44,708 bases of DNA. It comes from a virus. Shown in pieces: positions 6,417-42,591 of the stretch. How positions within the stretch are numbered: position 1 is the first letter of the stretch; every line of letters begins with the position of its first letter. Where the stretch lies: IMG/VR virus record IMGVR_UViG_3300044712_000253, positions 1 to 44,708 of that record. The stretch is one strand, 5' to 3'. The position numbers were made by a program, and so were the translations under genes. The notes beneath the pieces were generated by a model that saw nothing but the letters and a program-made list of their open reading frames with translations, made no database searches and was not told the origin of the DNA.

Positions 6417-6449
6417 AAAATTCACATATATTAAGAAAAATAAAAATTT

Positions 6450-20515: not shown

Positions 20516-22474
20516 ATGAAGATTGTTTATAAGCCTTGGGGGAAAGAAGAATGGATAGAACAAAATGAATATTATTGCTACAAAAGAATTTATATAAATA
20601 GTGGTTATAAGACTAGTTATCAATATCATAATGAAAAAATAGAAACCAACTACATTATATCAGGTAAAGCTGAAGTTTGGCTCGAAAATGATAATGGTGT
20701 TGTTGAAAAAAAAGAAATGCAAACCAATGATTTTTTTACTGTACAAAAGAAAAGAAAACATAGAATAATTGCTAAATCAGACATAATATTACAAGAAGTA
20801 TCAACACCACAAGTTGATGATGTTATAAGAATCGAAGATGATAATAATAGAAAAAATGGAAAAATTGAAGAAGAACAATATAATCCAACGTGTGTTATAC
20901 TTGCATCAGGCAAAGGATTAAGATTGGGTGATTATACAAAAAATATTAATAAAGCACTATTACCAATAAATGGAAAAGCAATTATATCTCACATCATTGA
21001 AAAAATACCAAAATATATTGATATAATAATCACAATTGGATATAAAGGTGAATTAATTAAAGAATATTGTGATGCCGCACATTCAGAAAGAAATATAATA
21101 TTCGTAAATGTTGATGATTATGATAAAATAGGCAATGGTCCTGGTGCATCCTTATTAAAATGTAAAGATATGTTACAAAAACCGTTTTATTTTATAACAG
21201 CAGATTGTATCATAGATGATAAAACATTACCAAATATTGATAGTGATTGGATTGGTGTTTCTTATACAGAATCCCCCGATATATATTCTACTGCTAAAAT
21301 TGATGATAATTGGAATGTTATTGATTTTAAAAATAAATCAAAAAATGGATTTGAATATGCGTATATTGGATTATCTGCAATATATAATTATGATATATTT
21401 TGGAAATCACTTGAAAATAATATAAATGATGGTGAAGTAATCAACGTTTATATGGATAAAAATTATAAAGTAAAAGCCAAAAATATATCATGGGCTGATA
21501 CCGGAACAATCGAAAATTATAAAATAACTAAATCATATTTAGAAACACAATATTGTGAACTTCCAAAAAACGATGAATATTTTTATAATGTTAATAATAA
21601 CATAATTAAAATATTTATTGATGAAAAAATATGTCAAAATAGAATTGAAAGGTGTGAATATTTAAAAGATTATATTCCCGAAATAACATATAAAGGTAAA
21701 AATACTTACGCTTATGCATTTGTTGAAGGTGATACACTATATGCAATAGATAATTTTCATACGTATGATAGATTTTTAAAATTTTTAAAAGATTTTTGGA
21801 AAATAGAAAATGTTGATATTTCAAATGATGCTAAATTATTTTATCACGATAAAACATATAGTAGATTAAATAAAATATTAGAAAAATATCCAAATTTGGA
21901 TAAATTCGAATATATAATTGATGGTATTCAATATAAAAGTTTAGAATATTATCTATCAAAAATAGATTGGAAAATGTTGGAAAATTGTTTACCAAGTAAA
22001 ACATTTCATGGTGATTTACAATTTGACAACATCATTTATAACCGATGGTTAATAACAGATACATATGATGATTTCAAATTGATAGATTGGAGACAATCTT
22101 TTGGAAATTCAACTGAATATGGTGATATTTATTATGATTTAGCTAAACTTTATGGTGGATTATTAATATCATATTATGATATTAAACGAAATAATTTTTC
22201 ATTTTATGATGTTGAATTTGATACATTATTTGATCATTCAGCAAAATATACATTTATACCAAGAAATGTTAAATTGCAATATGTTCCATCCAAAAATTTA
22301 ATTAATTTTAAAAACCATTATGAAGAATGGATAATTGAAAATGGCTACGATCTAAACAAAATTAAAATTTTAACATTTATTATATATTTAAATATGATGC
22401 CACTACATGAAAAACCATTTGATTTATTTTTATTTTATTTTGCAAAAAAATTAATTGGTAATATTTATGAATAA
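20516..22474 (+). CDS. Fusion: cupin (mannose-6-P isomerase type) + sugar nucleotidyltransferase + APH-like kinase
   Basis: Three domains are visible in 652 residues. Residues 1-115 form a cupin (KPWGKEEW, YQYHNEKIETNYIISGKAEV) like the small mannose-6-phosphate isomerase domain. Residues about 120-345 are a nucleotidyltransferase: CVILASGKGLRLGDYTKNIN with K-ALLP-INGK, and FITADCIIDD as the metal-binding Asp region, ending WADTGTIENY. Residues about 385-640 are an aminoglycoside-phosphotransferase-like kinase: TFHGDLQFDNIIYN (H-x-D-x4-N) and KLIDWRQSFGN. The combination suggests synthesis of an activated sugar from a phosphorylated or free sugar by one polypeptide. First gene of the island. 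NDP identity and the sugar are unknown; a mannose- or heptose-type sugar is plausible. Confidence 0.85.
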   Translation: MKIVYKPWGKEEWIEQNEYYCYKRIYINSGYKTSYQYHNEKIETNYIISGKAEVWLENDNGVVEKKEMQTNDFFTVQKKRKHRIIAKSDIILQEVSTPQVDDVIRIEDDNNRKNGKIEEEQYNPTCVILASGKGLRLGDYTKNINKALLPINGKAIISHIIEKIPKYIDIIITIGYKGELIKEYCDAAHSERNIIFVNVDDYDKIGNGPGASLLKCKDMLQKPFYFITADCIIDDKTLPNIDSDWIGVSYTESPDIYSTAKIDDNWNVIDFKNKSKNGFEYAYIGLSAIYNYDIFWKSLENNINDGEVINVYMDKNYKVKAKNISWADTGTIENYKITKSYLETQYCELPKNDEYFYNVNNNIIKIFIDEKICQNRIERCEYLKDYIPEITYKGKNTYAYAFVEGDTLYAIDNFHTYDRFLKFLKDFWKIENVDISNDAKLFYHDKTYSRLNKILEKYPNLDKFEYIIDGIQYKSLEYYLSKIDWKMLENCLPSKTFHGDLQFDNIIYNRWLITDTYDDFKLIDWRQSFGNSTEYGDIYYDLAKLYGGLLISYYDIKRNNFSFYDVEFDTLFDHSAKYTFIPRNVKLQYVPSKNLINFKNHYEEWIIENGYDLNKIKILTFIIYLNMMPLHEKPFDLFLFYFAKKLIGNIYE

Positions 22475-22489
22475 AAAAAGAAAGAAGTT

Positions 22490-23143
22490 ATGAATATAAA
22501 TAAAGACACTAAAATTTTTGGTTCATTTTCATTAAATGCCGGAAATAATGGAAATATTTTTTTTAACAACAATTTTCAAAATCTTAATATTAATGCGATA
22601 TATAGATCATTTTCAATTACAAATATTGAAGATGCAATTAAAGCCGCCAAATGTTTAAATTTTGGTGGTTTTGCTATTAGTATGCCATTCAAAAAAGAAG
22701 TTATAAAATTTGTTGATGATATTAGTGACGAAGTTAAAGAAATCGGTGCGTGTAATACAATTATTAATAATAATGGTAAATTAATTGCATATAATACTGA
22801 TTATATAGGTGTAAGAGAAACAATTAAAAATAAAATTAATGAAAATACATTAACTGAATTAGAAAATGTTTATATTCTTGGTGATGGTGGTATGGCAGCA
22901 GCGACCAAATACGCATTAACCCAAATATATTTAAAATACAAAATAATTAACAGAAATAATTGGAATGAAATTGAAACTTTAAAAAATAAAATCATTATAA
23001 ACTGCACACCAGTTAAAGATATAAAATATGATGATAGTAATATGTTTATTGATACACTACCTGACAGTGAAGATGGAAAATATATTCATAATGTTCAAGC
23101 AAAAAAACAATTTTATTTATATACAGGAATTGATTTATGTTAA
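22490..23143 (+). CDS. Shikimate-dehydrogenase-like (AroE family) protein, shortened
   Basis: The AroE pattern is recognisable: FGGFAISMPFKKEVIKF at about 58-74 (the Lys of the catalytic Lys-Asp pair), EIGACNTIINNNGKLIAYNT with DYIG following (the Asp), and a nucleotide-binding region VYILGDGGMAAATKYAL at 127-143. At 217 residues it is about 50 shorter than usual, mostly at the C-terminus, where NADP-site elements are reduced. It overlaps the GatZ-like gene downstream by seven bases. A shikimate role is unlikely in this setting; I infer an oxidoreductase acting on a cyclic sugar or quinate-like intermediate of the glycan pathway. Confidence 0.7.
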   Translation: MNINKDTKIFGSFSLNAGNNGNIFFNNNFQNLNINAIYRSFSITNIEDAIKAAKCLNFGGFAISMPFKKEVIKFVDDISDEVKEIGACNTIINNNGKLIAYNTDYIGVRETIKNKINENTLTELENVYILGDGGMAAATKYALTQIYLKYKIINRNNWNEIETLKNKIIINCTPVKDIKYDDSNMFIDTLPDSEDGKYIHNVQAKKQFYLYTGIDLC

Positions 23144-24135
23144 ATAAAGAAAAATTAAAAAATACAAAATTCTATATTGGTCCAATGTCTAAAAACATTG
23201 TAGATACAATATTAGATTTTTCAATTAATGAAAAAACTAATGTTGGTATTATTCCAACTAGAAGACAAATAGATTACAATGGTGGTTATGTAAACGATTG
23301 GACAACTGATAATTTTTTTAAATATGTAGAAAATAAAAAAAATGACCACATAATTTTTGAAAGAGATCACGGTGGCATTAATCAGGGTGTATATCAAGAC
23401 AATGGAACATCATCACTATATACAGATGCTAAATTATTTGATATAATACACATTGACCCTTGGCGATATTATAATAGTCCAAGCTATAGATTCGATGCAT
23501 TAAAAGAAACTGCTAATAATATAAAATACATTAATAAATTAAACCCAAATTGTTTCTTTGAAATTGGAACAGAAGAATCCATTTACAAATTCGATGAAAT
23601 CAAATTAAAACAAATGTTAATTTATTTGAAGAATGATTTAGGGAATGAATTATTTGATAAAATTATATATTGTGTCATTCAATCTGGAACAAAATTAGAA
23701 GGAACAAAAAACATTGGAAATTTTAATATTAACAGATTAAAAAAAATGTTAAACGTATGTGATGAATATAATATTTTATCAAAAGAACATAACGGTGATT
23801 ATTTAACACCTGAACAATTAAAACTTAGATTTGATGTTGGATTATCAGCAATTAATATTGCACCAGAATTTGGTGTATATGAAACTGATATATTATTAGA
23901 ATATATGAATAATGAACAAATAGAAAAATTCTTCAAAATTTGCTATTTATCTAATAAATGGGAAAAATGGGTTAATGAAAAATTTAATCCTATGAAAGAT
24001 AAAATAGAATTAATTCGAATTTGTGGTCATTATAATTTTTCTAATCCCGAATTTATTAATATGAACATAAACATTGATGATATTATCAAACAAAGATTAT
24101 ATGAAAAATTAAAAAAATTAAATAAAATATTATGA
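23137..24135 (+). CDS. GatZ/KbaZ-like TIM-barrel protein (tagatose-bisphosphate aldolase non-catalytic subunit family)
   Basis: Several family landmarks appear in order: GIIPTRRQIDYNGGYVNDWT (compare the GatZ N-Q-x-N-Q-x-G-G-Y-T region), IIFERDHGGINQG (D-H-x-G-x-N), FEIGTEESIY (IGTE), YCVIQSGTKLEG (V-x-P/S-G-x-E), LSKEHNGDYLTPEQL (EAHSTDYQT-like) and AINIAPEFGVYETDILL. Length 332 compares with about 420 in GatZ. It overlaps the AroE-like gene (7 bases) and the HAD gene (ATGA). Known relatives assist or perform sugar-bisphosphate aldol chemistry; here a step in making an unusual sugar is inferred. The assignment is by motif order, not by close identity. Confidence 0.6.
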   Translation: MLNKEKLKNTKFYIGPMSKNIVDTILDFSINEKTNVGIIPTRRQIDYNGGYVNDWTTDNFFKYVENKKNDHIIFERDHGGINQGVYQDNGTSSLYTDAKLFDIIHIDPWRYYNSPSYRFDALKETANNIKYINKLNPNCFFEIGTEESIYKFDEIKLKQMLIYLKNDLGNELFDKIIYCVIQSGTKLEGTKNIGNFNINRLKKMLNVCDEYNILSKEHNGDYLTPEQLKLRFDVGLSAINIAPEFGVYETDILLEYMNNEQIEKFFKICYLSNKWEKWVNEKFNPMKDKIELIRICGHYNFSNPEFINMNINIDDIIKQRLYEKLKKLNKIL

Positions 24136-24491
24136 TTGAAATGAAAAAAACTTTATTTATCGACATCGACGGAACCTTATTTAAACATCAAAGAAATTTA
24201 TCTGAAATGTTTATAAAAAATATGGAAGTACTACCTGGTGTTATTGAAAAATTTAATGAATGGGATGCAAAAGGATATAAAATTATATTAACCACAGGAA
24301 GAAAAGAATGTTTAAGAAAAATAACTGAAGAACAATTACTTAAAAATGGTATTTTCTTTGACCAATTGGTAATGGGATTAACTCGTGGTGAACGAATTCT
24401 AATTAATGATATAAAACCAAATAATGATATGTCTGTTGCAACAGCAATTCAAATTAATAGGGATGAAGGGTTAAAAAATATAGAAATTTAA
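24132..24491 (+). CDS. HAD-superfamily phosphatase, small (119 aa)
   Basis: Motif I FIDIDGTLF (nucleophile Asp, acid/base Asp) at about residues 9-17, motif II ILTTGRKE (Thr) at 50-57, and LINDIKPNN (motif IV Asp) at about 90-98. This is the compact cap-less type found in many capsule loci and related to GmhB/KdsC-like phosphatases. The ATG at 24132 overlaps the upstream stop in ATGA. It could remove a phosphate from a sugar bisphosphate (GmhB-like step), which fits the heptose kinase and isomerase elsewhere in the island; that link is inference. Confidence 0.8.
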   Translation: MIEMKKTLFIDIDGTLFKHQRNLSEMFIKNMEVLPGVIEKFNEWDAKGYKIILTTGRKECLRKITEEQLLKNGIFFDQLVMGLTRGERILINDIKPNNDMSVATAIQINRDEGLKNIEI

Positions 24492-24492
24492 T

Positions 24493-26004
24493 ATGAAATT
24501 TTCAATAATTACACCAATATATAAAACACCCGAATATAAAATTAAGCGATTATATAATTCATTAGTAAATCAAACATATTCTGATTGGGAATGGATTGTT
24601 TTTGATGATTCTCCAACAGATTATAAAGATTCTTATAATTTTGTTAGTAATTTATCAAAATCGGATGATAGAATAAAGTTATATTCTGAAAATAAAAATT
24701 GTGGAATTATTGGTGAAGTAAAAAGAAATGCTTTTTATTTAGGTAGTGGTGACATTTTAGTTGAAGTTGATCATGATGATGAACTAATAAATACGTGTCT
24801 TGAAAATTTAAAAATTGCATACGAATATTCTGATGAAATCGGATTTGTTTTTGGATTTTGTTGTGAAATATATGAAGACGAAGAAAATATATTAGACTAT
24901 GGTGATCTTTGGGCTTTTGGGTATGGTGGATATACTGATATTGTTTATAATAATAAAAAATATAAAGTTGCAACTGTTGGAAATGTTAATCCAAAAACAA
25001 TTAGGCACATTGTAAGTATACCAAATCATGTTAGAACCTGGAAAAAAGATGTCTATTATAAAATTGGTGGACACAATAAACATTTACACGTTGCGGATGA
25101 TTATGAACTATATGTGAGAACATTTTTAAATACTAAAATTGCAAAAATTAATGCGTTTACATATATACAATATTTTGAAAGAAATGCCACCAATACACAA
25201 TTTGTAAAAAATAAGGATATACAAGATTTAGTTGCATTGACTGCAAATTATTATAATGATAAAATTCACAATAGATTTATAGAACTTGGTGTCAATGATT
25301 ATGTTTGGATTGATTCAAAAACATATGATTTAAATCTACCAAATCCACAAAAAGAAGAATATGCAAACATTATAATACCTAACAATTTATTAATAAACAA
25401 TTTAGATTTTGACAAAAATATAAATTATGATATTGTGGAAAATGATGATTTTTTAAATACGTTTGCATATTCAAGACTTTATAATATACCTTCAACTATT
25501 AAATATAAACAAACTGAACATTACTATAATTTAATAAAATGGTTAATCAAATTAACAAATTGCCAGTCGTATTTAGAATTGGGTAGTGAAACTATTCAAG
25601 AAATTAAAAAAATCGTTAAAACTTGTGTATGTGTTGATAATATAAATATAAAAAATAATGATATAGAATTATTTCAAATGACAACAAATGAATTTTTTAA
25701 AATAAATAATCAAAAATTCGATATAATATTTATAGATAAAAATCACAATTTTAAACAAACAAAAATAGATTTTGATAATTCGCTGAATATATTAAACAAA
25801 CATGGTATTATTATAATACATGATACAGATCCGATAACCGAAGAATTATTAAAGCCAAATCATTGTGATGATTGTTATAAAATAATTGATTATATTGAAA
25901 AACAAGAATATTTGAATGTAATTACATTACCATTACAAGAAACCGGGATGACAATTGTAATGAGAAAAAACGATAAAAGAATTATCAACATTAAAAATAA
26001 TTAA
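24493..26004 (+). CDS. Fusion: GT2 glycosyltransferase + methyltransferase-like domain
   Basis: Residues 1-280 form a GT-A family 2 transferase: FSIITPIYKTPEYKIKRLYN, then QTYSDWEWIVFDDSP, and ILVEVDHDDEL (DxD-type metal site). Residues about 345-500 resemble a SAM-dependent methyltransferase of the Methyltransf_24 type: SYLELGSETIQE (motif I, weakened), KFDIIFIDKNHNFKQTKIDF (motif IV with the typical H), and GIIIIHDTDP. Motif I lacks the usual GxG, so activity is uncertain. Cytoplasmic transfer plus methylation of a sugar in one protein is the likely role. Two bases separate it from the HAD gene. Confidence 0.8.
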   Translation: MKFSIITPIYKTPEYKIKRLYNSLVNQTYSDWEWIVFDDSPTDYKDSYNFVSNLSKSDDRIKLYSENKNCGIIGEVKRNAFYLGSGDILVEVDHDDELINTCLENLKIAYEYSDEIGFVFGFCCEIYEDEENILDYGDLWAFGYGGYTDIVYNNKKYKVATVGNVNPKTIRHIVSIPNHVRTWKKDVYYKIGGHNKHLHVADDYELYVRTFLNTKIAKINAFTYIQYFERNATNTQFVKNKDIQDLVALTANYYNDKIHNRFIELGVNDYVWIDSKTYDLNLPNPQKEEYANIIIPNNLLINNLDFDKNINYDIVENDDFLNTFAYSRLYNIPSTIKYKQTEHYYNLIKWLIKLTNCQSYLELGSETIQEIKKIVKTCVCVDNINIKNNDIELFQMTTNEFFKINNQKFDIIFIDKNHNFKQTKIDFDNSLNILNKHGIIIIHDTDPITEELLKPNHCDDCYKIIDYIEKQEYLNVITLPLQETGMTIVMRKNDKRIINIKNN

Positions 26005-26009
26005 AAAAA

Positions 26010-26975: not shown

Positions 26976-27040
26976 AAAATAAATAAAAGAATATGTTTAC
27001 ATTAGATTTACCATATAAAGTAAAAATAATAAAAAGAATT

Positions 27041-28642
27041 ATGAAATTTTCAATAGTAATATTAACAAAAAATGATAGTGAAAACTTATCAACATTATTA
27101 AATTCTCTAGTGGAATTTAAAAATTGTGGTGGGGAAGTATGTATAATAGATATTGGGTCTACAGATAATACACTAGAAATAGCAAATGATTGGGGATGTA
27201 AAATTGACAATGGTACAATATATTTAAGAAATATTGATAATGATATGGTTAATATTATTAATGAAAAATTTGATAATTTAATCAATAATACAGACAATTA
27301 TTTTGATTATTCGGGTCTTAAAAATTATGCTGCTTCTATTGTTTCAAATGATATGTTATTTATTATAAACGCAAATATTAATTTAATTAATTTTGATATT
27401 CAAGATATACAAAATTATATTGATGCTGGATATGATTTAATTAATTTTGAAACATTAGATAACAATATAATAAATTCCATTTATAATAGACAAAAATTTA
27501 ATTGGGAAAATATAGTCTGTGAAAAATTAATTAAAATCACACCAGATGAAACTAAAGAAATTTTCACACAATCATTAAAAATATTATCATTAAATAATAA
27601 AAATTTCACTGAAAATGACCGTGAAATGTTGGTTGGTTTAGTCATATCATGTTTTTTAAATCCAACCGATAGGTTTATGAATCAAAAACTTTTATATGAA
27701 TTAAATAATAATTATGCAAATTTTACATTAAAAGAATTAGACAGACAATTAAATATTTATGATGATATCGAAAAATGTAAATTATTAGTTGATTATGGTG
27801 ATTTGTTATTAAGAAAAAATAATGATGATTTAGCTATAGAATATTATCATAAAGCATATTTGATATGTAGTAAATTACGATTACCTCTTTATAAATTAGG
27901 ACAATATTACTATAACAAAAAAATATGGGATAGATGTATTTTTTATTTAGAAGGTTGTTTAAATATACCAAAAACTGATATGTCTGATGACGATTTTATG
28001 TATAAAGATGGTCCATATTCTATGCTATATGTAGCATGGTGGTGGAATGGTGATATTAAAAAAGGTAAATATTATTTTGATAAAGCAATTGAAATTGATC
28101 CACATAATATTTTATATATCGAAGAATCAATATATCACTATAACTATAAAGGTAATAATATTGATGGTAATGAAACTTTTCAACAACTTCAATTTTTATA
28201 TAATAACGGTATAAAATATAATTCAATATTGGAAGTGTATCCAAATGCGAGAAGCACTGAAGCATTATTGTCTAGTACAAATAATATTGTAACTGTTATA
28301 AGAAAATCTGAATGTAATTGTTTTATACTAGGATTAGATAATCCAGGAAATTTAAAAATAATGTATACAATTGAAGAATCTATAAACTATTTCGAAAAAG
28401 AGAATATAAAATTTGATATGATCGTTCTACATAATTATAATGACATAATTCAAGATTATAATGATTTTTGGTTTATTAGAATTTGGGAAAAGTTTGCTAA
28501 TAAACTATTGTGTGGTTTCGATTATATTGAAAATAAAAAAATGATTGATGATACATTTGAAATATCAGGTGTTACAGATAATATTTGGTATAAAAATATA
28601 AGTTCATTCGAAAAAACAACAATCTATAAAAAGAAAAATTAA
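27041..28642 (+). CDS. GT2 glycosyltransferase with TPR repeats and C-terminal methyltransferase-like region
   Basis: ATG at 27041 is chosen because MKFSIVILTKNDSENLSTLL is the typical GT2 start; an ATG at 26993 would add 16 atypical residues. GT2 signatures: VCIIDIGSTDNTLEIA at about 31-46 and the following D-rich region. Residues about 225-390 contain helical TPR-like repeats (DDLAIEYYHKAYLICSKLRL; GKYYFDKAIEIDPHNILYIE), a layout shared with SunS-type and other processive or protein-directed transferases. The final 120 residues (YNSILEVYPNARSTEALLSS) look like a degenerate methyltransferase fold. TPR modules suggest protein acceptors or partners. One base before the next gene's start context. 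Confidence 0.75.
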   Translation: MKFSIVILTKNDSENLSTLLNSLVEFKNCGGEVCIIDIGSTDNTLEIANDWGCKIDNGTIYLRNIDNDMVNIINEKFDNLINNTDNYFDYSGLKNYAASIVSNDMLFIINANINLINFDIQDIQNYIDAGYDLINFETLDNNIINSIYNRQKFNWENIVCEKLIKITPDETKEIFTQSLKILSLNNKNFTENDREMLVGLVISCFLNPTDRFMNQKLLYELNNNYANFTLKELDRQLNIYDDIEKCKLLVDYGDLLLRKNNDDLAIEYYHKAYLICSKLRLPLYKLGQYYYNKKIWDRCIFYLEGCLNIPKTDMSDDDFMYKDGPYSMLYVAWWWNGDIKKGKYYFDKAIEIDPHNILYIEESIYHYNYKGNNIDGNETFQQLQFLYNNGIKYNSILEVYPNARSTEALLSSTNNIVTVIRKSECNCFILGLDNPGNLKIMYTIEESINYFEKENIKFDMIVLHNYNDIIQDYNDFWFIRIWEKFANKLLCGFDYIENKKMIDDTFEISGVTDNIWYKNISSFEKTTIYKKKN

Positions 28643-28645
28643 AAT

Positions 28646-29410: not shown

Positions 29411-29411
29411 T

Positions 29412-30404: not shown

Positions 30405-30430
30405 CGTTTAACTTAAATTTGGAATATTTA

Positions 30431-30438: not shown

Positions 30439-30453
30439 GTAAAACATTATGAA

Positions 30454-30918: not shown

Positions 30919-30943
30919 TCAATTTTAAAAAACGAAAAACAAT

Positions 30944-31876: not shown

Positions 31877-31903
31877 AAAATAATATCAACTTACTGTAAA
31901 TTA

Positions 31904-31917
31904 AATAATATATTATT
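31904..31917. other. AT-rich palindrome in an intergenic gap
   Basis: AATAATATATTATT is a perfect 14-base palindrome in the 60-bp gap between the epimerase and the second dehydrogenase. It may be an operator or a weak hairpin, or simply reflect composition; no T-run follows directly. Confidence 0.3.
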
Positions 31918-31936
31918 AAAAATATTATGTTAATTT

Positions 31937-34032: not shown

Positions 34033-35012
34033 AAGTAGCAATAATAGGTTGTGGTTTAATCGGAAAAAAAAGATTACAAGCATTAGATGAAGATGATACA
34101 CTAGTTGCTTGTTGTGATATAGATTCAAAATTATCATTTGATTGTAAATTTTATGATGATTATAAAGAATTAATTCGAGAATCTGAATGTGATATTGTTA
34201 TTGTTTCTGTTATAAATAAATTTGCTAAAAATATCGTCGAATTTGCTTTAGAACACAAAAAACACGTATTAGTTGAAAAACCAATGGGAATGAATCATGA
34301 AGAATCGTTAAGTATGTATAATACATCACAAAATAACAATATTATTTTATATGTTGGATTTAATCATCGCTTTCATCCAGCAATTTTAAAAGCTAAAAAA
34401 TTACAAAATACCATAGGTAAAACTATAATTATCCGTGGCACATATGGTCATGGTGGAAGATTAGGAATGGAAAATGAATGGAGATGTAACAAAAATCTAT
34501 GTGGTGGTGGTGAATTATTAGATCAAGGTGTACATTTAATTGATTTAAGTAGATGGTTTGCGGGTGATATTAAATCTGTATTTGGAAAGACAAAAACAAA
34601 ATATTGGAACATTGAAGCAGAAGATAATGTGTTTATGTTATTAAAATCATATACAAATGTTGATATACAATTACACGCTAGTTGGACTAATTGGAAAAAC
34701 ACATTTCAATTTGAAATAATTGGTGAATATGGTTATTTAAAAATAAATGGTTTAGGTGGTTCATACGGCAAAGAAACTTTAGAATATGGGTTAAGAAATG
34801 TAGATAAAGGTGTTCCTGATATTGAATATTTTGAATTTGATAATGATGATTCATGGAAAATACAATGGAAGCATTTTAAAACCAATGTTGAAAATTTTAA
34901 CAATGGAAACCCAATCAGCGAAATTAATGGTGCTATTGATGGACTTAAAGCAAACAAAATTATAAAAGCTATTTACAAATCATCAAGAAAAAATAAAGTA
35001 ATAAAAATATGA
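34029..35012 (+). CDS. Gfo/Idh/MocA-family oxidoreductase
   Basis: Rossmann start KVAIIGCGLIGKKRLQAL, then HVLVEKPMGMNHEESLSMYN (the EKP motif with catalytic Lys) at about 80-99, VGFNHRFHPAILKAK, and GGGELLDQGVHLIDLSRWF (D-x-G-x-H-x-x-D), all typical of the NAD(P)-dependent sugar oxidoreductases of this family. 327 residues, family length. It overlaps the SDR upstream and the SIS gene downstream by four bases each. It likely acts on a sugar or nucleotide sugar; the partner of the SDR in two-step redox is plausible. Confidence 0.92.
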   Translation: MKVAIIGCGLIGKKRLQALDEDDTLVACCDIDSKLSFDCKFYDDYKELIRESECDIVIVSVINKFAKNIVEFALEHKKHVLVEKPMGMNHEESLSMYNTSQNNNIILYVGFNHRFHPAILKAKKLQNTIGKTIIIRGTYGHGGRLGMENEWRCNKNLCGGGELLDQGVHLIDLSRWFAGDIKSVFGKTKTKYWNIEAEDNVFMLLKSYTNVDIQLHASWTNWKNTFQFEIIGEYGYLKINGLGGSYGKETLEYGLRNVDKGVPDIEYFEFDNDDSWKIQWKHFKTNVENFNNGNPISEINGAIDGLKANKIIKAIYKSSRKNKVIKI

Positions 35013-35593
35013 CATTTTCGGAAGAATTTATTGGTAATTGCCAATTGATAACAAAAAAAATAAACACAGATATAATTGAAGATATTGTTGATATTTTAGT
35101 TGAAACTAGAGACCATAAAGGAAGATTGTTTATTATTGGATCAGGTGGTGGTGCAGGTCACGCATCACATGCAGTATGTGATTTTAGAAAATTATGTAAT
35201 ATTGAATCATATGCACCATACGATAATATATCGGAATTGACAGCAAGAATTAATGATGATGGTTGGGAATCATCAATTGTTAATTGGTTAAAAATTAGTA
35301 ATTTTAATTATAGTGATTGTATTTTTATTATTTCTGTTGGTGGTGGAAGTAAAGAATATAACATAAGTATGAATCTCGTAAACGCATTAATATATGCTAA
35401 AGATTTAGGATCAAAAATTGTTGGTATTGTTGGTAAAGATGGTGGAATAACTAAAAATTATGGTGATGCTGTTGTTATTATACCAACTATTGTAGATGAT
35501 CAAATTACACCAATGACAGAAGGATTTCAATCTATAATTTGGCATCTTTTGGTATCACACCCAAAATTAAAAATAAATAAAACAATATGGTAA
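35009..35593 (+). CDS. SIS-domain sugar isomerase, GmhA-like
   Basis: The sugar isomerase core shows FIIGSGGGAGHASHAVCDFR (phosphosugar-binding Gly/Ser loop), then FIISVGGGSKEYNISMNLVN and KIVGIVGKDGGITKNYGDAV, similar to phosphoheptose isomerase (GmhA), which converts sedoheptulose 7-phosphate to D-glycero-D-manno-heptose 7-phosphate. 194 residues matches GmhA length. It is followed by, and overlaps, a transaldolase-type gene whose product could supply the C7 ketose. Close relatives with other phosphosugar substrates exist, so the heptose assignment depends on context. Confidence 0.75.
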   Translation: MTFSEEFIGNCQLITKKINTDIIEDIVDILVETRDHKGRLFIIGSGGGAGHASHAVCDFRKLCNIESYAPYDNISELTARINDDGWESSIVNWLKISNFNYSDCIFIISVGGGSKEYNISMNLVNALIYAKDLGSKIVGIVGKDGGITKNYGDAVVIIPTIVDDQITPMTEGFQSIIWHLLVSHPKLKINKTIW

Positions 35594-36279
35594 AAATATT
35601 CGCAGATGGTGCAGATAAAAAATCTATGATTGAAATGTACAATAATCCATTAATATATGGACTAACAACAAACCCAACATTAATGCGTAAAGCTAATATA
35701 TCCAATTATAAAGATTTTGCAATAGAAATTTTATCAGAAATTAAAAATAAACCAATATCATTCGAAGTTTTTTCTGATGATTTTCAGGAAATGGAAAAAC
35801 AAGCACTAGAAATATCTTCGTGGGGTAATAATGTGTATGTTAAAATACCAATAACAAACACAAAAGGTGAATCAACATATCAAGTAATTGATAATTTATC
35901 AAAAAATAGTGTAAAACTTAATATAACGGCAATTACAACAATCGAACAACTTAAATTTATACCACTATATAATTTAACTGGATTTATTTCAATTTTTGCT
36001 GGAAGAATTGCAGATACTGGCATCAATCCATTACCAATAATGTCAGAAGCTTTAGATATATTAAAGAACTATTCGAACATCGAATTAATTTGGGCATCTT
36101 GTCGTGAAGTATATAATATAAAACAAGCAGATGATATTGGGTGCCACATAATAACAGTAACTAATGATATACTTAATAAAGCATTTAAAAACCTTGGGAA
36201 GGATTTAAAAGATATGTCACTAGAAACAGTTAAAATGTTTTATGATGATGCATTACAATCTGGTTATATAATAAAATAA
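35587..36279 (+). CDS. Transaldolase / fructose-6-phosphate aldolase-like protein
   Basis: TIM-barrel transaldolase signatures: FADGADKKSMIEMYN (catalytic Asp region), GLTTNPTLMRKA (T-T-N-P), VYVKIPITNTKG (Schiff-base Lys) at about 97-108, and FAGRIADTGINPLP (F-x-G-R-I-x-D). At 230 residues it is the small FSA/TalC type. It overlaps the SIS gene by seven bases. Transaldolases exchange a three-carbon unit and can yield sedoheptulose 7-phosphate, the substrate of GmhA, so the pairing is suggestive. Activity and donor remain to be tested. Confidence 0.88.
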   Translation: MVKIFADGADKKSMIEMYNNPLIYGLTTNPTLMRKANISNYKDFAIEILSEIKNKPISFEVFSDDFQEMEKQALEISSWGNNVYVKIPITNTKGESTYQVIDNLSKNSVKLNITAITTIEQLKFIPLYNLTGFISIFAGRIADTGINPLPIMSEALDILKNYSNIELIWASCREVYNIKQADDIGCHIITVTNDILNKAFKNLGKDLKDMSLETVKMFYDDALQSGYIIK

Positions 36280-36287
36280 AAAATGAT

Positions 36288-38507
36288 ATGAGATTTCACG
36301 TTTTAGGTGTTTCTTTTGCACCAACAAATAAAGAATATTCATGTGAAGGATTTTCACAAAAAGTTAGATTATTCTGTAAAATGATGACAGAACTTGGTCA
36401 TACAGTATTTCATTATGGTGTTGAAGGTTCTAATCCAATTTGTACTGAAAATATAATTGTTGTTTCAAAAGAAACATATGAAAAAGTTCATAAAATATAT
36501 GATTATAAAATAGATGGATTTTCTTATTTTTCAGAAACAGAAGCACAGGAAGAATTCAATTTTAATGCTATAATAGAAATTCAAAAAAGAAAACAGACAA
36601 ACGACTTTTTATGTTTTAGTTTTGGTTTTCCACAAAGACCAATTTATGATGCTCATAAAGATTTAATTTCAACTGAAATTGGTGTCGGATTTGATGGTTC
36701 TTTTGCACCACATCGAGTATTTGAAAGCTATGCGTGGATGCATACAATTTATGGAAAAGAAAATAAATTACAAAATCCAAGTTTTTATGATGCTGTTATC
36801 CCAAATTACTATGATCTCGATGATTATATTTATTCAGAACAAAAAGACGATTATTTTTTCTTTATTGCTAGATTAGACCCATTAAAAGGATTGGAAATAG
36901 CTTTAAGATCAGCAGAATATGTTGGATCTAAATTGATTGTTGCGGGTATTGGTAAACCTCATCTAATAAGTCCAAATTTAATTCATATTGGGGTTGTAGA
37001 TTTTGAACAACGAGCTAAATTAATGAGTAGGGCTAAAGCCACGTTTATCCCAACAAATTATATTGAACCATATGGATCAACTGTTGTTGAATCATTATTA
37101 TGTGGAACACCTGTAATAACTACTGATTTTGGGGCATTTACTGAAAATGTACAACACGGTAAAGTTGGATATCGTTGTAGAACACTTGAACAATTTTATT
37201 GGGCAACAAAAAATATCAACAACATAAAACCAATTGATTGTCGTAATTATGCGGTGGAAAATTATTCAATGAATAGGATTAGTAAAATGTACGAAGAATA
37301 TTTTTATTCATTATATAAATTATCAACAACAAATGAAGGTTGGTATCAAAAAAATATCGGTAGAAATAATTTAAATTGGTTATATAAATATATTCCTGAT
37401 GTAAAAATTCAAGAAAAAGATAACCGACCAATACTATGTTTTTTAGTTGGTTATACCCCAGATTTATTTGATATTAGAACAAAAAACAATTATGGTAGTG
37501 AAATAACACTAGTTAAATTGGCAGAACAATTTTCTAAAAAATATCGAGTTTTAATATTTGGTAATGAATTTTATAATGAAAAAATTGTCAATAATATTGA
37601 ATACTTAAATGCTTCAAGATTTCAAGACTTTCAAGATGAAAATGATATTGAAATTACAATAATATCAAGATATATATACCATATTGTTGAAAATGAGATA
37701 AAATCAAAAAAAATATATATTTGGGTTCACGATGCAAATATATTACCATACTACCAAGGTAAAGAATATCCAAATAGCGGAATTGATGATTTACGTAATA
37801 TTTTAAATAATATTGATGGTATTATTACATTATCAAATTGGCACAAAGAATATTTTATTGATTTTTATAATATTGACAATCCCAATAAAATTTTTGTTAT
37901 CCCAAGCGCAATTGATACTAATATGTTTAGTGGTAATTTTAAAAAACAAAAAAATAAATTTATTTGGACTTCACATGGATATAGAGGAATTGATAAATTA
38001 TTAGAATATTTTCACGATATAAGAGCAAAATTACCTGATGCTGAATTATATATATATCGAGACATAACTGCATTTAATGAAAATGCTTTAAATGAAATGG
38101 AAAAATATGATTATTTTCATTATTGCGGAAAACTCGATCACACAAAAATACCATCAGAATTTGAAAATTCAGAAATTTGGTTTTATCCAACAAACTTTAC
38201 TGAATCATATTGTATGAGTGCTGTCGAAGCACAAATGTCAAAATGTGTTTGTATTGGTACAAACATTGGTGCATTAACTGAAACTATTGGAAATAGGGGT
38301 GTTATAATAAATGAAGAAATTTGGAGTGAAGAATATAAAGAAAAAGCTATTAATGAAATTGTTGATATTTTAACTAATGATGAACGTAAAAAAAATTATC
38401 AAGAAGCTGGATATAATTGGGCAAAGGAACAAACTTGGGAAAATAGAGCTGAACAATGGTATAAATTATTTGATATGAAATCAAATATTAAAAAAAAAAA
38501 TAAATAA
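36288..38507 (+). CDS. Tandem GT4-type glycosyltransferase (two GT-B domains)
   Basis: Two GT-B transferases are fused in 739 residues. The first (1-350) has FFFIARLDPLKGLEIALRSA (donor-binding R..KG) and EPYGSTVVESLLCGTPVITT with DFGAFTENV (E-x7-E). The second (385-730) has FVIPSAIDTNMF, IWTSHGYRGIDKLLEYF and ESYCMSAVEAQMSKCVCIGT. Both resemble family 4 retaining enzymes. No membrane segment. Such doubles can add two sugars in sequence or polymerise a disaccharide. It lies eight bases after the transaldolase gene. Sugar specificity unknown. Confidence 0.88.
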   Translation: MRFHVLGVSFAPTNKEYSCEGFSQKVRLFCKMMTELGHTVFHYGVEGSNPICTENIIVVSKETYEKVHKIYDYKIDGFSYFSETEAQEEFNFNAIIEIQKRKQTNDFLCFSFGFPQRPIYDAHKDLISTEIGVGFDGSFAPHRVFESYAWMHTIYGKENKLQNPSFYDAVIPNYYDLDDYIYSEQKDDYFFFIARLDPLKGLEIALRSAEYVGSKLIVAGIGKPHLISPNLIHIGVVDFEQRAKLMSRAKATFIPTNYIEPYGSTVVESLLCGTPVITTDFGAFTENVQHGKVGYRCRTLEQFYWATKNINNIKPIDCRNYAVENYSMNRISKMYEEYFYSLYKLSTTNEGWYQKNIGRNNLNWLYKYIPDVKIQEKDNRPILCFLVGYTPDLFDIRTKNNYGSEITLVKLAEQFSKKYRVLIFGNEFYNEKIVNNIEYLNASRFQDFQDENDIEITIISRYIYHIVENEIKSKKIYIWVHDANILPYYQGKEYPNSGIDDLRNILNNIDGIITLSNWHKEYFIDFYNIDNPNKIFVIPSAIDTNMFSGNFKKQKNKFIWTSHGYRGIDKLLEYFHDIRAKLPDAELYIYRDITAFNENALNEMEKYDYFHYCGKLDHTKIPSEFENSEIWFYPTNFTESYCMSAVEAQMSKCVCIGTNIGALTETIGNRGVIINEEIWSEEYKEKAINEIVDILTNDERKKNYQEAGYNWAKEQTWENRAEQWYKLFDMKSNIKKKNK

Positions 38508-38508
38508 A

Positions 38509-39129
38509 TTGGATTTAGATTTTTTAGAAATCGGAACATCAGATGTTGATACACTTATAGAAAAATGTACAGATGATACTATTGGCATTAGCGTAGAACC
38601 CATAAAATATTATTTGGATAAATTACCAACTAAAAAAAATGTTAAAAAAATAAATATAGCCATCACTGGTGATCAAATTAGTAATAAAATTAAAATATAT
38701 TATGTGCCATTTGATACTATAATAAAAGAAAATTTACCTTTATTTTTTAGGGGATGTAATAAAGTTGGTGACTATCATCAATTACATATTGATTTTAATA
38801 TTCAACATCTTGTTAAAATAGAAGAAGTTGATTTAATTAATATCGGCGATTTCTTAATACATAATAATATAAGAAAAATAAATCATCTTAAAATTGACAC
38901 AGAAGGATATGAAATTAATATATTAAAAGGATTATATAATCACATTTCAAAATTACCAGAAATTTATCATCCAAATGAAATATTATTTGAGACAAATACA
39001 TATGGTGTAAAGTTTTTTAATGAAGTTAATGAAATTTTAACATTATATTATAATATCGGATATGAATTAGAATATAGTAATATTATACCAAGACAATGTA
39101 CAGATACATTAATAAAAAAAATAAAATAA
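38509..39129 (+). CDS. FkbM-family methyltransferase
   Basis: There is no in-frame ATG at the beginning; TTG at 38509, two bases after the upstream stop, is the likely start, giving MDLDFLEIGTSDVDTLIEKC, which places the FkbM motif I (EIGTSDxDT) at the N-terminus as in small family members. IDTEGYEINILKGLY (about 125-139), with the characteristic D-T-E-G, confirms FkbM. 206 residues. FkbM proteins methylate hydroxyl groups of sugars or small molecules with SAM. It is translationally close to the tandem glycosyltransferase and the WavE-like gene, so a glycan O-methylation is inferred. Confidence 0.85.
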   Translation: MDLDFLEIGTSDVDTLIEKCTDDTIGISVEPIKYYLDKLPTKKNVKKINIAITGDQISNKIKIYYVPFDTIIKENLPLFFRGCNKVGDYHQLHIDFNIQHLVKIEEVDLINIGDFLIHNNIRKINHLKIDTEGYEINILKGLYNHISKLPEIYHPNEILFETNTYGVKFFNEVNEILTLYYNIGYELEYSNIIPRQCTDTLIKKIK

Positions 39130-39133
39130 AATT

Positions 39134-41227
39134 ATGTCAAATTATTCAGATGAATATTTAAATAAATATATTTTAGATAACGATTTACCCAAAATTTCAA
39201 TTTTAGATTTTTGGCCTGCATATAATCGAGGAAAATATACATTTTATTTGGAAACATATGATAAATATCCCACAGATAAAATTGAAATTATTTCAAATAT
39301 TAATGATATGACAGGTGATTATGTAATATCAGCAAATAAAAGAGATTCTTCAACATTTTTAATAATTAACTATTTAAAAAAAATTAATGGTGAAAATTCA
39401 TATTTATTTACTAAGGATGAATATATTTCAAAATATCTTAATCCAGGTAAAATTGCAATTTGTATAAAGAATTTCGAAAGAAATGAAAGTTCAAATCTTG
39501 TTGCAATATCTGTAAAACATTTTATTCCTGATGCAAAAATATATTTATTTAATTTTTATGATGAACGAAAAAATATTAATGTTGATTATTTGGATCAAAA
39601 TTTATATCAAGATATTGTAAATATTCCTACAAAATATTTACTTGGTCAAATTTTAACTAACTGTAGTAATGCAAGAAATAATGGATTATATTATACGGAA
39701 GGTTTTAATTTAATGTATAAATATTTTCAAGATTATAATGGCAAATTACTAATGTTAGATGATAATCATTTTTTTACAAACGGAAATACATTAAAAGAAA
39801 TACTAGATAATGATTTTGATATTGCTTGGGCATTTTTTGGTGGAACTCCACCAAAATTAAACGGTGATTATTTAATAATTCCACATAAATCAATGGGTAA
39901 TATTTGTTGTGGTGGTTATATAAATGCATCTATATTATGTATAAATCCAATTAAATTTAAAAATTTAAATGTTTTCCCATTACCAGAATATCGTGAATAT
40001 ATTGAAACTATATTAACCGAAAAATTAATTGATAACAATAATTTAGTAAAGTATCAAATAAAAAGTAGATATGATGGTGATTATTCTAATGATGGAATAT
40101 ATTCAAATAATGCCGAAGAAATGAAACAGATGATGATGGAATATAATATTTTAGATAAATTTGGAAATCAAATAAAGAATATATTAAGTACAAATAATGA
40201 AAAAATCGCAATAATTATACAGGGACCATCATTATATGTAAATGAAATAAAAAATGCTTGGTATGGGTTTGATAATAATATAATTTTTTCAACTTGGAAA
40301 GGTGATGAAAATAAATATAATGAAAATGATATAGTTATTTTTAATGATATACCTACTATATCTGGACCAAAAAATTTTAATTATCAAAAAATTTCAACAT
40401 ATAATGGATTACTTAAAGCTAAAGAATTAGGATATACACATGTATTAAAAATTAGAAGTGATTATTTACCAACAAACGCAAACGAATTTATTAAATTATT
40501 AGATTTTAATAAATTGAATTTTTTAATGTGGGATTATACAACATATCTATGGACAAAATATCCAACATTTAATGGTTATTTTGATGATCATTTTTCATTT
40601 GGAAAAGTAGATGATATGATCACATTATGGGACATCCCATTTAATTTTTGTGATTCACCAGAAACAATGCTAACATGGAATTATATCAATAAATTAAAAG
40701 ATGTTGATGTAAATTATATACTACCACATTTAAACGAAAATAATGATTTATATTATATTAAATTTGATAATAATGATTTAAATAATTGTTATGCACACAA
40801 TATTATAAATAAAAATTTTGGTGATCGTGAATTAATTGGAAGATATGAAAGTGTATTTAATAATAATTCTGAATACAAAAAAACACCAAATGAAACAAGA
40901 AAATTTATGAATGATGATTATTTAAATTTCTTAAAATTTTATAATAATCTACCAAAAATTAGTATTAATTTAAATAGTGATATTAAAAAAAATATTATAT
41001 ATCCTGAACATAAATTAGAATTCATTTCAAATATTGATGATGCCACGGGAGAATATATTATAAATTCTTGTGACATTTTATCAAACACAACATTAATATT
41101 AGAATATTTTAAGAAAAAAAATATTATTTATATTAATCCGACTACAAGTTTAGTTGAAAATAATATATATGAATCAAATCTTCTAACATTAGAAGAATAC
41201 AAAAAAAAAAAATATAAATATAAATGA
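39134..41227 (+). CDS. Two-domain transferase with C-terminal WavE-like domain
   Basis: The C-terminal part (about 355-600) shows the WavE lipopolysaccharide-synthesis pattern: IAIIIQGPSLYVNEI, then IIFSTWKGDE, FNDIPTISGPKNFNYQKIST and HVLKIRSDYLP (K-x-R-x-D). The N-terminal part (95-330) is another transferase-like region with KLLMLDDNHFFTNG and NICCGGYINASILCI, GT-A-like but not assigned. A repeat-like pair, KIEIISNINDMTGDYVIS near 50 and KLEFISNIDDATGEYIIN near 645, flanks both ends, which suggests internal duplication of a small module. It overlaps the next gene by four bases. Donor unknown. Confidence 0.7.
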   Translation: MSNYSDEYLNKYILDNDLPKISILDFWPAYNRGKYTFYLETYDKYPTDKIEIISNINDMTGDYVISANKRDSSTFLIINYLKKINGENSYLFTKDEYISKYLNPGKIAICIKNFERNESSNLVAISVKHFIPDAKIYLFNFYDERKNINVDYLDQNLYQDIVNIPTKYLLGQILTNCSNARNNGLYYTEGFNLMYKYFQDYNGKLLMLDDNHFFTNGNTLKEILDNDFDIAWAFFGGTPPKLNGDYLIIPHKSMGNICCGGYINASILCINPIKFKNLNVFPLPEYREYIETILTEKLIDNNNLVKYQIKSRYDGDYSNDGIYSNNAEEMKQMMMEYNILDKFGNQIKNILSTNNEKIAIIIQGPSLYVNEIKNAWYGFDNNIIFSTWKGDENKYNENDIVIFNDIPTISGPKNFNYQKISTYNGLLKAKELGYTHVLKIRSDYLPTNANEFIKLLDFNKLNFLMWDYTTYLWTKYPTFNGYFDDHFSFGKVDDMITLWDIPFNFCDSPETMLTWNYINKLKDVDVNYILPHLNENNDLYYIKFDNNDLNNCYAHNIINKNFGDRELIGRYESVFNNNSEYKKTPNETRKFMNDDYLNFLKFYNNLPKISINLNSDIKKNIIYPEHKLEFISNIDDATGEYIINSCDILSNTTLILEYFKKKNIIYINPTTSLVENNIYESNLLTLEEYKKKKYKYK

Positions 41228-42591
41228 TTAAATTGTTGATATTCGATTTAGATGGTGTTTTAGTTTCAACAAAAGATATTCATTATAAATCCCTCAATAA
41301 AGCATTATCAAATATAGATAACAAATATGAAATATCTTTAAATGATCATGTTGAAAGATATGATGGGTTACCCACAATAAAAAAACTACAAATGTTGACA
41401 ATAGATAAAAATCTTCCTGTTGAATTTTATGATCAAATTAATAGAGATAAACAAAATTATACATTTGATATTATTAGGCAAATTATCAAAAAGGATAATA
41501 GATTGATTAATATTCTTAAAAAATTAAAAAATGATGGATTCAAAATATATGTTGCTTCTAATTCTATTCGAGAAACAGTTAAATTACTTTTATATTATAC
41601 TGGATTGATAGAATATGTTGATTATTATATATCAAACGAAGATGTTAAAAATGCTAAACCAAGTTCCGAAATATATTTAACATGTATGGTTCATGCCGGA
41701 TTTGATCCAGATGAAACACTAATCATAGAAGATTCACCACGTGGAATAGAATCAGCACAAAATGCTAAAGCACATTTATTAATTGTTGAAAATCCAGAAT
41801 GTGTTACTTATGAAAAAATAATTGATAAAATGAATAAAAATAAAAATAAAAATAAAGTTAAAATTGATAATTTAAATATTTTAATACCAATGGCAGGTTT
41901 GGGTAGTAGATTTGAAAAATATTATAGTTATCCAAAACCATTAATTGATATTTATGGTAAGACTATGATACAAGTTGTTGTTGAAAGTTTAGGTATAGAT
42001 GCTAATTATATTTATATTGTTAGAAAAGAACATTGTGATAAATATAATCTAAAAATGTTATTAAATATTATAACACCAAATTGTGAAATAATTGAAATAG
42101 ATAATGTTACTGAAGGTGCTGCATGTACAACCTTGAAATCAGAAAAATATATAAATAATGATAATATGTTATTAATTGCCAATTCTGATCAATATATTAA
42201 TTGGAATCCAATGAATTTTTATTATAAAATGATCGAAACAAAATCTGATGGTGGTATATTAACATTTGAATCTAACCACATTAAATGGAGTTATGTTAAA
42301 TTAAATGAAAAAAATTTAGTAGAATTAGTTGCGGAAAAGCAGCCGATATCAAATCATGCGACCTGCGGTATATATTTTTTTAAAAAAGGTTCTGATTATG
42401 TGAAATATGCAAATCAAATGATAAATAAAAACATAAGAGTTAATAATGAATTTTATGTAGCACCTATTTATAATGAATTTATATTAGATAATAAAAAAAT
42501 AACAACATATGATGTTGATAAAATGATGGGTTTGGGTGATCCAGAATCATTAAATATATTTTTAACTGAATATAAGAAAGAAGATTTATAA
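41224..42591 (+). CDS. Fusion: HAD phosphatase/phosphoglucomutase-like + sugar nucleotidyltransferase
   Basis: Residues 1-205 are a HAD of the beta-phosphoglucomutase/phosphatase type: LLIFDLDGVLVSTKDI (nucleophile Asp), VASNSIRETV, AKPSSEIYL (Lys) and LIIEDSPRGIESAQ (motif IV). Residues about 217-455 are an NTP transferase: ILIPMAGLGSRFEKYYSYPK (G-x-G-S-R-F, Lys), TEGAACTTL and LLIANSDQYINW (metal Asp). The linker is a Lys/Asn stretch (NKNKNKNKVK). One polypeptide could move or remove a phosphate and then activate the sugar. It is the last gene of the island; the sugar could be hexose or heptose. Confidence 0.88.
   Translation: MIKLLIFDLDGVLVSTKDIHYKSLNKALSNIDNKYEISLNDHVERYDGLPTIKKLQMLTIDKNLPVEFYDQINRDKQNYTFDIIRQIIKKDNRLINILKKLKNDGFKIYVASNSIRETVKLLLYYTGLIEYVDYYISNEDVKNAKPSSEIYLTCMVHAGFDPDETLIIEDSPRGIESAQNAKAHLLIVENPECVTYEKIIDKMNKNKNKNKVKIDNLNILIPMAGLGSRFEKYYSYPKPLIDIYGKTMIQVVVESLGIDANYIYIVRKEHCDKYNLKMLLNIITPNCEIIEIDNVTEGAACTTLKSEKYINNDNMLLIANSDQYINWNPMNFYYKMIETKSDGGILTFESNHIKWSYVKLNEKNLVELVAEKQPISNHATCGIYFFKKGSDYVKYANQMINKNIRVNNEFYVAPIYNEFILDNKKITTYDVDKMMGLGDPESLNIFLTEYKKEDL

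What the first reader, a model, noticed from the sequence alone, without database searches (positions are those of the whole stretch)
20516..42591. A 22-kb glycan biosynthesis island inside a phage genome
About eighteen consecutive, mostly overlapping plus-strand genes encode sugar-nucleotide synthesis, sugar redox chemistry, methylation and at least six glycosyltransferase-like proteins (motifs given in the features). Phages seldom carry more than a few such genes. The organisation resembles a bacterial capsule or O-antigen locus, yet it lacks any visible flippase, polymerase or transporter, so a membrane-exported polymer is less likely than cytoplasmic glycosylation of protein or DNA. The adjacent Ser/Thr-rich collagen-like fibres are obvious candidate acceptors, which is inference.
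Basis: partly seen in the sequence, partly recalled or inferred. Interest (0 to 1): 0.9.

Follow-up and report, generated by a model that had tools for sequence, protein, structure and literature searches.

The report
Phage sugar-making island beside collagen fibres
A fragment of a giant-phage genome carries about twenty conserved genes for building unusual heptose-based sugars, placed between collagen-like tail-fibre genes, and comparison with many other phages suggests the sugars are attached to the phage's own fibres rather than to the host cell surface.

Summary
Twenty tightly packed plus-strand genes (20516-42591, plus 42721-43209) encode sugar-nucleotide, redox, methylation and glycosyltransferase (GT) proteins between collagen-like fibre genes. 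The core is a heptose route: transaldolase, GmhA-like isomerase, HddA-like kinase, HAD phosphatase and nucleotidyltransferase. No island protein has a transmembrane helix. The island is stable: two other viral contigs carry the same fibre|island junction and gene order, and genes in one show dN/dS 0.14-0.45, so it is neither stuffer DNA nor bacterial contamination. A fibre gene matches 635-735-kb Mahaphages, predicted to infect Bacteroidetes. Large phage glycan islands are already known from T4-like cyanophages, so "phages seldom carry these" is only partly right. New here: two island GTs have lone relatives inside virion-structure operons. The GT4 family lies near Thr-rich collagen-like genes in other viruses: 33 of 64 loci within two genes, against 17 expected. 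In megaphage LR756501 the GT2 relative follows the capsid gene. Bacterial precedent: C. difficile SgtA glycosylates Thr in the collagen repeats of the adjacent BclA3. Best reading: cytoplasmic O-glycosylation of the phage's own collagen-like fibres (about 0.6). Main rival: modification of host surface glycan using host export. No glycan has been measured.

The parts
16979..20450 (-). three collagen-like fibre genes (16979-18064, 18064-19260, 19245-20450); GPT/GST/GSI triplets, no Lys in triplets; the latter two end in an S74-type chaperone; proposed acceptors
   Evidence: same divergent arrangement in G004 and L043
20516..22474 (+). cupin + nucleotidyltransferase + kinase-like (HGDLQFDN) fusion
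   Evidence: Pfam PF01050, PF12804, PF00483; the kinase part is read from the sequence only; full-length relatives in L043, L203, L217 and, as two adjacent genes, L038
22490..23143 (+). truncated shikimate-dehydrogenase-like protein
   Evidence: PF08501 5e-18
23137..24135 (+). conserved protein with weak GatZ/KbaZ (aldolase-like TIM barrel) similarity; travels with 20516, 22490 and 24132
24132..24491 (+). small HAD phosphatase
24493..26004 (+). GT2 glycosyltransferase fused to Methyltransf_24; GT2 relative follows the capsid gene in megaphage LR756501
26010..26975 (+). radical SAM enzyme (CxxxCxxC)
   Evidence: PF04055 1e-13; 79% in G004
26993..28642 (+). GT2-TPR protein
28646..29410 (+). DUF7796 / phrog_13607 protein, adjacent to the heptose kinase here and close to it in cyanophages
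29370..30404 (+). HddA-like D-glycero-D-manno-heptose 7-phosphate kinase
   Evidence: NF049969 5e-59 but below its cut-off; PDB 4n3o, 3k85
30454..30918 (+). GNAT acetyltransferase with a capsid-targeting-like N-terminus (possibly an unrelated internal protein)
30944..31876 (+). NAD-dependent sugar epimerase/dehydratase
   Evidence: PF01370 1e-56
31937..33187 (+). nucleotide-sugar dehydrogenase family with catalytic Cys replaced by Thr
   Evidence: TIGR03026 5e-90
33184..34032 (+). short-chain dehydrogenase/reductase
   Evidence: PF00106 7e-37
34029..35012 (+). Gfo/Idh/MocA sugar oxidoreductase
35009..35593 (+). GmhA-like sedoheptulose-7-phosphate isomerase (SIS)
   Evidence: TIGR00441 1e-10, below cut-off; PDB 1tk9; 48% viral relatives
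35587..36279 (+). transaldolase (S7P supply)
   Evidence: TIGR02134 311.7 bits, above cut-off 282
36288..38507 (+). two fused GT4 glycosyltransferases; N-terminal one is phrog_3408, linked to collagen-like genes in other viruses
38509..39129 (+). FkbM methyltransferase
   Evidence: PF05050 1e-11
39134..41227 (+). WavE-like putative glycosyltransferase (borderline)
   Evidence: PF07507 27.1 bits against cut-off 27
41224..42591 (+). HAD phosphatase fused to nucleotidyltransferase (GmhB/HddC-like roles proposed)
42721..43209 (+). phrog_34507 protein; cyanophage relative sits beside the heptose kinase, so the island extends to here
43222..44706 (-). second collagen-like fibre gene closing the island (GSS/GVN/GTS repeats), cut by the record end
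15814..16959 (-). WxxGxW-repeat fibre protein; marker of Mahaphage relatedness
4745..7748 (+). upstream mini-cluster: protein without a family match, methyltransferase, canonical UDP-glucose 6-dehydrogenase

Best explanation
The island is a self-contained cytoplasmic pathway by which a Mahaphage-like giant phage decorates its own collagen-like fibres with a short, modified heptose-containing glycan. Proposed order: transaldolase supplies sedoheptulose 7-phosphate; the GmhA-like isomerase makes heptose 7-phosphate; the HddA-like kinase makes the 1,7-bisphosphate; a HAD phosphatase removes the 7-phosphate; a nucleotidyltransferase activates heptose 1-phosphate; SDR, Gfo and NDP-sugar dehydrogenase-family enzymes and methyltransferases modify the sugar. 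The soluble GT4, GT2 and WavE-like enzymes then build the glycan on Ser/Thr, most likely Thr/Ser in the Gly-X-Thr/Ser triplets of the flanking fibres. Shown: gene content, conserved order with the fibres, purifying selection, no membrane proteins, family association of the GTs with virion and collagen-like genes. Inferred: each reaction, the nucleotide used, the acceptor and the effect (fibre stability, masking, altered adsorption).
For: Heptose module; GmhA-transaldolase-HddA-epimerase run in order in L003. Fibre|island junction kept in window, G004 and L043. GT4 family: collagen-like ORF in 49 of 64 non-redundant viral loci, 33 within two genes against 17.3 expected (maximum 28 in 5000 permutations), 58 of 59 on the GT strand; its neighbours include head-tail adaptor, GT25, prohead protease, capsid and 2OG-oxygenase. 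In cyanophages S-CAM7 and ACG-2014f the lone GT sits with a 2OG-oxygenase just before the giant tail fibre, with a collagen-repeat protein upstream in ACG-2014f. GT2 relative (58%) directly after portal-protease-capsid genes in LR756501 and next to collagen-like genes in L049, L066, L068, L077, L112. Collagen ORFs near GT4 have Thr at Y in 65% of triplets and no Lys. No proteins with two or more TM segments in seven other phage islands. Precedent: SgtA adds GlcNAc to Thr of the collagen repeats of the adjacent BclA3 (PMC7157674).
Against: No glycan has been measured. Association is not activity. Thr-rich Y positions are common in bacterial collagens generally (32% in all bacteria, 48% in Gram-positives; PMC8968730). 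Heptose-kinase loci other than the window lineage showed no collagen ORF nearby. The pathway resembles LPS/capsule chemistry, and one four-gene module also occurs beside a polymerase-like membrane protein in a Flavobacteriaceae genome. HddA- and GmhA-like scores are below equivalog cut-offs.
Confidence: 0.58

Rival explanations
1. The island remodels the host's LPS or capsule during infection (superinfection exclusion or receptor masking): phage GTs act on host lipid-linked intermediates at the inner membrane and the host's own flippase and ligase export the product.
For: Enzymes are of LPS/capsule type; published readings of cyanophage and pelagimyophage clusters favour this (PMC7824862, PMC7029224); part of the module occurs in a Flavobacteriaceae locus with a polymerase-like membrane protein.
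Against: No membrane protein or initiating phosphoglycosyltransferase in any phage island examined; lone relatives of two GTs sit inside virion-structure operons beside collagen-like genes.
Confidence: 0.27
2. The glycan is attached to other virion proteins (capsid, tail tube), not mainly the collagen-like fibres.
For: GT2 relative directly follows the major capsid gene in LR756501; mycobacteriophage capsid and tail-tube glycosylation is reported (Freeman 2023, cited in PMC12619734).
Against: In the window and two relatives the island abuts fibre genes, and the GT4 family follows collagen-like genes.
Confidence: 0.09
3. The genes glycosylate phage DNA.
For: Known for T4-like phages; many GTs in the island.
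Against: No family match to a DNA glucosyltransferase and no hydroxymethyl-base synthesis found in the window; heptose synthesis is unnecessary for known systems; partners are virion genes.
Confidence: 0.02
4. The island is non-functional filler or a chance capture.
For: Sullivan 2010 raised 'stuffer DNA' for cyanophage clusters (PMC3037559).
Against: Conserved order in three contigs and dN/dS 0.14-0.45.
Confidence: 0.02

Closest known systems
LPS-type gene clusters of T4-like cyanophages (P-SSM2, S-SSM7, Bellamy gp200-228, SynMITS9220M01 187-212)
   Same: 15-30 co-directional genes; in Bellamy and SynMITS9220M01 HddA-like kinase, phosphoheptose isomerase, cupin, nucleotidyltransferase, epimerases, GTs, methyltransferases; no export genes
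   Different: Different lineage (Mahaphage-like, predicted Bacteroidetes host); cupin, nucleotidyltransferase and kinase-like parts fused; island bounded by collagen-like fibres; about 20-42% protein identity
Marine virus AG-345-E15 island (MH319741)
   Same: 20516-, 23137- and 24132-type genes contiguous, plus HddA, cupin, nucleotidyltransferase, dehydrogenase
   Different: about 24-45% identity; more 2OG-oxygenase-like genes and a carbamoyltransferase-like protein (read by eye); no fibre junction seen in the piece read
SgtA-BclA3 of Clostridium difficile
   Same: GT gene next to a collagen-like GPT-repeat glycoprotein; O-linkage to Thr (PMC7157674)
   Different: GlcNAc donor, spore protein, one initiating GT; no homology tested
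Mimivirus collagen hydroxylase-glucosyltransferase L230
   Same: virus-encoded glycosylation of viral collagen-like protein (PMC4691112)
   Different: acts on hydroxylysine; fibres 16979-20450 have no Lys in their collagen triplets
GDP-D-glycero-D-manno-heptose pathway (GmhA, HddA, GmhB, HddC)
   Same: isomerase and kinase homologues, HAD and nucleotidyltransferase present
   Different: scores below equivalog cut-offs; HAD and nucleotidyltransferase fused; viral transaldolase added

Membership tests
Phage-encoded large glycan (LPS-type) island, as in cyanophages | 15 or more contiguous sugar-nucleotide/GT genes in a phage genome | tested here: met
Phage-encoded large glycan (LPS-type) island, as in cyanophages | homologous gene set with cyanophage islands | tested here: met
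   29370, 28646, 42721, 20516 N-terminus, 41224 C-terminus, 30944
Phage-encoded large glycan (LPS-type) island, as in cyanophages | cyanobacterial host | tested here: inconclusive
   fibre gene matches Mahaphages, predicted Bacteroidetes phages (PMC7162821); host not shown
Wzx/Wzy or ABC-exported capsule/O-antigen locus | flippase, polymerase or ABC transporter and initiating phosphoglycosyltransferase | tested here: not met
   record is a fragment, so genes elsewhere remain possible
GDP-heptose (Hdd) pathway | HddA-type GHMP kinase above equivalog cut-off | tested here: inconclusive
   NF049969 200 bits against 600; closest PDB entries include heptose kinases
GDP-heptose (Hdd) pathway | GDP as the nucleotide and heptose as the product | not testable with these tools
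   needs enzyme assay
UDP-glucose/GDP-mannose dehydrogenase (31937) | catalytic Cys in GGxC motif | tested here: not met
   Thr at that position; the paralogue 6450 keeps Cys
Collagen-like glycoprotein modification system (SgtA-BclA type) | GT encoded next to a Thr-rich Gly-X-Thr/Ser collagen-like protein | tested here: met
Collagen-like glycoprotein modification system (SgtA-BclA type) | sugar on Thr of the repeats | not testable with these tools
   needs mass spectrometry
Mimivirus-type hydroxylysine glycosylation | Lys in collagen triplets and lysyl hydroxylase | tested here: not met
   no Lys in triplets of 16979-20450; two in 43222-44706; no Pfam 2OG-oxygenase match among the window proteins scanned
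Mahaphage clade | marker phylogeny (terminase or capsid) | not tested
   window holds neither gene; only fibre and GT2 similarity

The most novel reading that the evidence does not exclude
Tailed phages widely encode a collagen-glycosylation system: a GT4 family (phrog_3408), often with GT25 or 2OG-oxygenase partners, that O-glycosylates Thr-rich collagen-like virion proteins. In this giant-phage lineage it has expanded into a complete heptose-sugar factory, so the virus builds its own heptosylated fibres independently of host sugar supply.
Probability: 0.35. Interest if true: 0.85.

Novelty: new variant of a known kind. Interest (0 to 1): 0.62.

Why it matters
The purpose of phage 'LPS clusters' has been open since they were seen in cyanophages (host masking, metabolite or stuffer DNA). 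Linking their GTs to collagen-like virion proteins in many phages gives a specific, testable answer. If right, phage fibres would be glycoproteins made with virus-encoded rare sugars, which bears on host recognition, virion stability and immune recognition of phages, and would make collagen glycosylation a recurring viral invention in prokaryotes as well as in mimiviruses.

Tried and rejected
Wzx search of the record: none. Bacterial contamination: rejected by phage flanks and two colinear viral contigs. DNA glycosylation: no supporting enzyme. Lysine-type collagen glycosylation: rejected for 16979-20450 (no Lys). Cyanophage origin: weakened by fibre matches to Mahaphages. tblastn with the GmhA-like protein against named phages found nothing, although IMG/VR relatives exist. 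Structure search of the GT4 domain gave only soluble GT-B enzymes with varied acceptors (closest: alpha-1,2-glucosyltransferase 7fg9), so fold does not settle the acceptor. As a control for collagen base rate the DnaJ scan gave too few loci (3), so a within-locus permutation was used; 14 other viral loci gave 1 with a collagen ORF. UGDH 6450 scan: one relative. Rfam: nothing. The promoter/terminator scan found no more sites than shuffles. Paper searches for phage collagen glycosylation found no direct prior report in the held library, which is not proof of novelty.
Full report
1. Observation. The window is a complete 44,708-base IMG/VR virus record, classed linear and so probably a fragment. 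Genes from 20516 to 42591 are all on the plus strand, 20 in number, with junctions of -41 to +60 nt; gene 42721-43209 follows after 129 nt. No protein of the island has a transmembrane segment by a Kyte-Doolittle scan (in the whole window the only segment above threshold is in the open frame antisense to the repeat protein at the left edge), so flippase, polymerase, transporter and initiating phosphoglycosyltransferase are absent from this record.

2. Pathway. The island holds a GmhA-like isomerase (35009), a transaldolase above its NCBIfam cut-off (35587), an HddA-like kinase (29370; nearest solved structures include heptose 7-phosphate kinases), two HAD phosphatases (24132, 41224 N-terminus) and two nucleotidyltransferases (20516, 41224 C-terminus). 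This is the content expected for NDP-heptose from fructose 6-phosphate. HddA and GmhA scores are below the equivalog cut-offs, so 'HddA-like' and 'GmhA-like' are the right words. In viral contig L003 the isomerase, transaldolase, kinase and epimerase genes follow one another. Redox enzymes (30944, 31937, 33184, 34029) and methyltransferases (24493 C-terminus, 38509) would diversify the sugar. 31937 belongs to the UDP-glucose dehydrogenase family but has Thr where the catalytic Cys should be, so it should not make a uronic acid in the usual way.

3. Stability and lineage. IMG/VR contig G004 repeats RtcB, two small genes, the WxxGxW fibre, collagen fibres and then the first nine island genes in the same order and orientation at 48-80% identity; it has one of them (28646) twice. 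L043 repeats the fibre|island junction and seven genes. dN/dS between window and G004 is 0.14-0.45 for the nine island genes, against 0.21 for RtcB. A 147-kb relative (G001) is largely colinear with window 1-17 kb but has other fibres beyond 15814 and none of the island; it carries instead a split HldE, the ADP-heptose enzymes. The 15814 fibre matches five uncultured phage records of 635-735 kb; five genomes above 634 kb form part of the Mahaphage clade and are predicted to infect Bacteroidetes (PMC7162821). I equate the two sets by size; this was not checked by accession. Closest bacterial relatives of 23137 are mostly marine Bacteroidetes, and one Flavobacteriaceae genome has 20516-22490-23137-24132 in the window's order.

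4. What is the acceptor? Two GTs give independent evidence. (a) The N-terminal GT4 domain of 36288 is phrog_3408, with at least 597 relatives in IMG/VR. Among 64 non-redundant loci, 49 contain a collagen-like ORF, 33 within two genes of the GT; random placement within the same loci gives 17.3 on average and never more than 28 in 5000 trials; 58 of 59 collagen ORFs are on the GT's strand. Neighbours include the SU10 adaptor, GT25, prohead protease, capsid, S74 and 2OG-oxygenase families. In the cultured cyanophage S-CAM7 and in ACG-2014f the gene stands alone among tail genes with a 2OG-oxygenase, before a 5.9-kb tail-fibre gene. (b) The GT2 domain of 24493 has a 58% relative directly after portal, protease and capsid genes in LR756501, and weaker relatives immediately next to collagen-like genes (L049, L066, L068, L077, L112). 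Structural roles of the LR756501 genes were read from the sequences by eye.

The fibres beside the island are rich in GPT, GST and GSI triplets, without Lys in the triplets of 16979-20450; collagen ORFs near the GT4 have Thr at position Y in 65% of triplets and essentially no Lys. This excludes the mimivirus hydroxylysine route for those fibres and fits O-linkage to Thr, for which C. difficile SgtA-BclA3 is a demonstrated bacterial case with the GT gene immediately upstream of the collagen-like gene (PMC7157674).

5. Limits. Adjacency is not biochemistry. The permutation controls for position within loci, not for the base rate of collagen genes; a separate control scan failed for lack of loci. 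Heptose-kinase loci outside this lineage do not show collagen genes nearby, so heptose and fibre glycosylation may be joined only here. Published readings of related clusters favour changes in host LPS, and a phage could use host export. The second half of the island (30944-42591) has no colinear relative in hand because G004 and L043 end earlier. The GT4 model (pLDDT 86) is a soluble GT-B enzyme but does not reveal the acceptor.

6. Novelty. Large phage glycan islands are known in T4-like cyanophages, so the island is a new variant of a known kind: a Mahaphage-like phage, a fused cupin-nucleotidyltransferase-kinase-like protein, collagen-fibre boundaries. The general GT4-collagen link across phages was not found in the held literature and is the more interesting result.

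Noticed in passing
window 31937-33187: UDP-glucose/GDP-mannose dehydrogenase homologue whose catalytic Cys is replaced by Thr while the paralogue at 6450-7748 keeps it; may stop at the aldehyde or do other redox chemistry.
   Followed up: partly
window 30454-30918 and 3338-3589; G001 (L021-L028): Several small proteins start with sequences like MLKFKEFINEE or MKTYNQFIE, resembling the T4 internal-protein capsid-targeting sequence; 38 of 153 G001 ORFs fit a loose pattern against about 17 for internal segments (maximum 29 in 200 trials). They may be packaged and injected, including the GNAT inside the island.
   Followed up: partly
L023:3689-4648 and L028:4606-5094: The 147-kb sister phage carries HldE as two separate genes about 100 kb apart (heptose 7-phosphate kinase and heptose 1-phosphate adenylyltransferase), so this lineage may use ADP-heptose too.
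   Followed up: partly
L120-L199: GT25 (collagen galactosyltransferase/LPS-type) and 2OG-Fe(II) oxygenases recur beside the GT4 and collagen-like genes, suggesting hydroxylation plus glycosylation cassettes.
   Followed up: partly
L043:6359-7195: Extra ORF between the 23137 and 24132 homologues, absent from the window; looks like a mobile endonuclease, not tested.
   Followed up: no
L001 last 300 bases (end of contig G004): A reading frame after the heptose kinase resembles an IS605/TnpB-type transposase start, so the second half of the island may differ in that phage.
   Followed up: no
window 3-797 (-): Highly repetitive protein of unknown function (phrog_23259-like), cut by the record end; also present in G001.
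   Followed up: no
window 2283-3344: Protein with tandem IICPEHGxF-type zinc-finger-like repeats and an endonuclease-like C-terminus; relatives recur several times in G001 and in LR756501.
   Followed up: no
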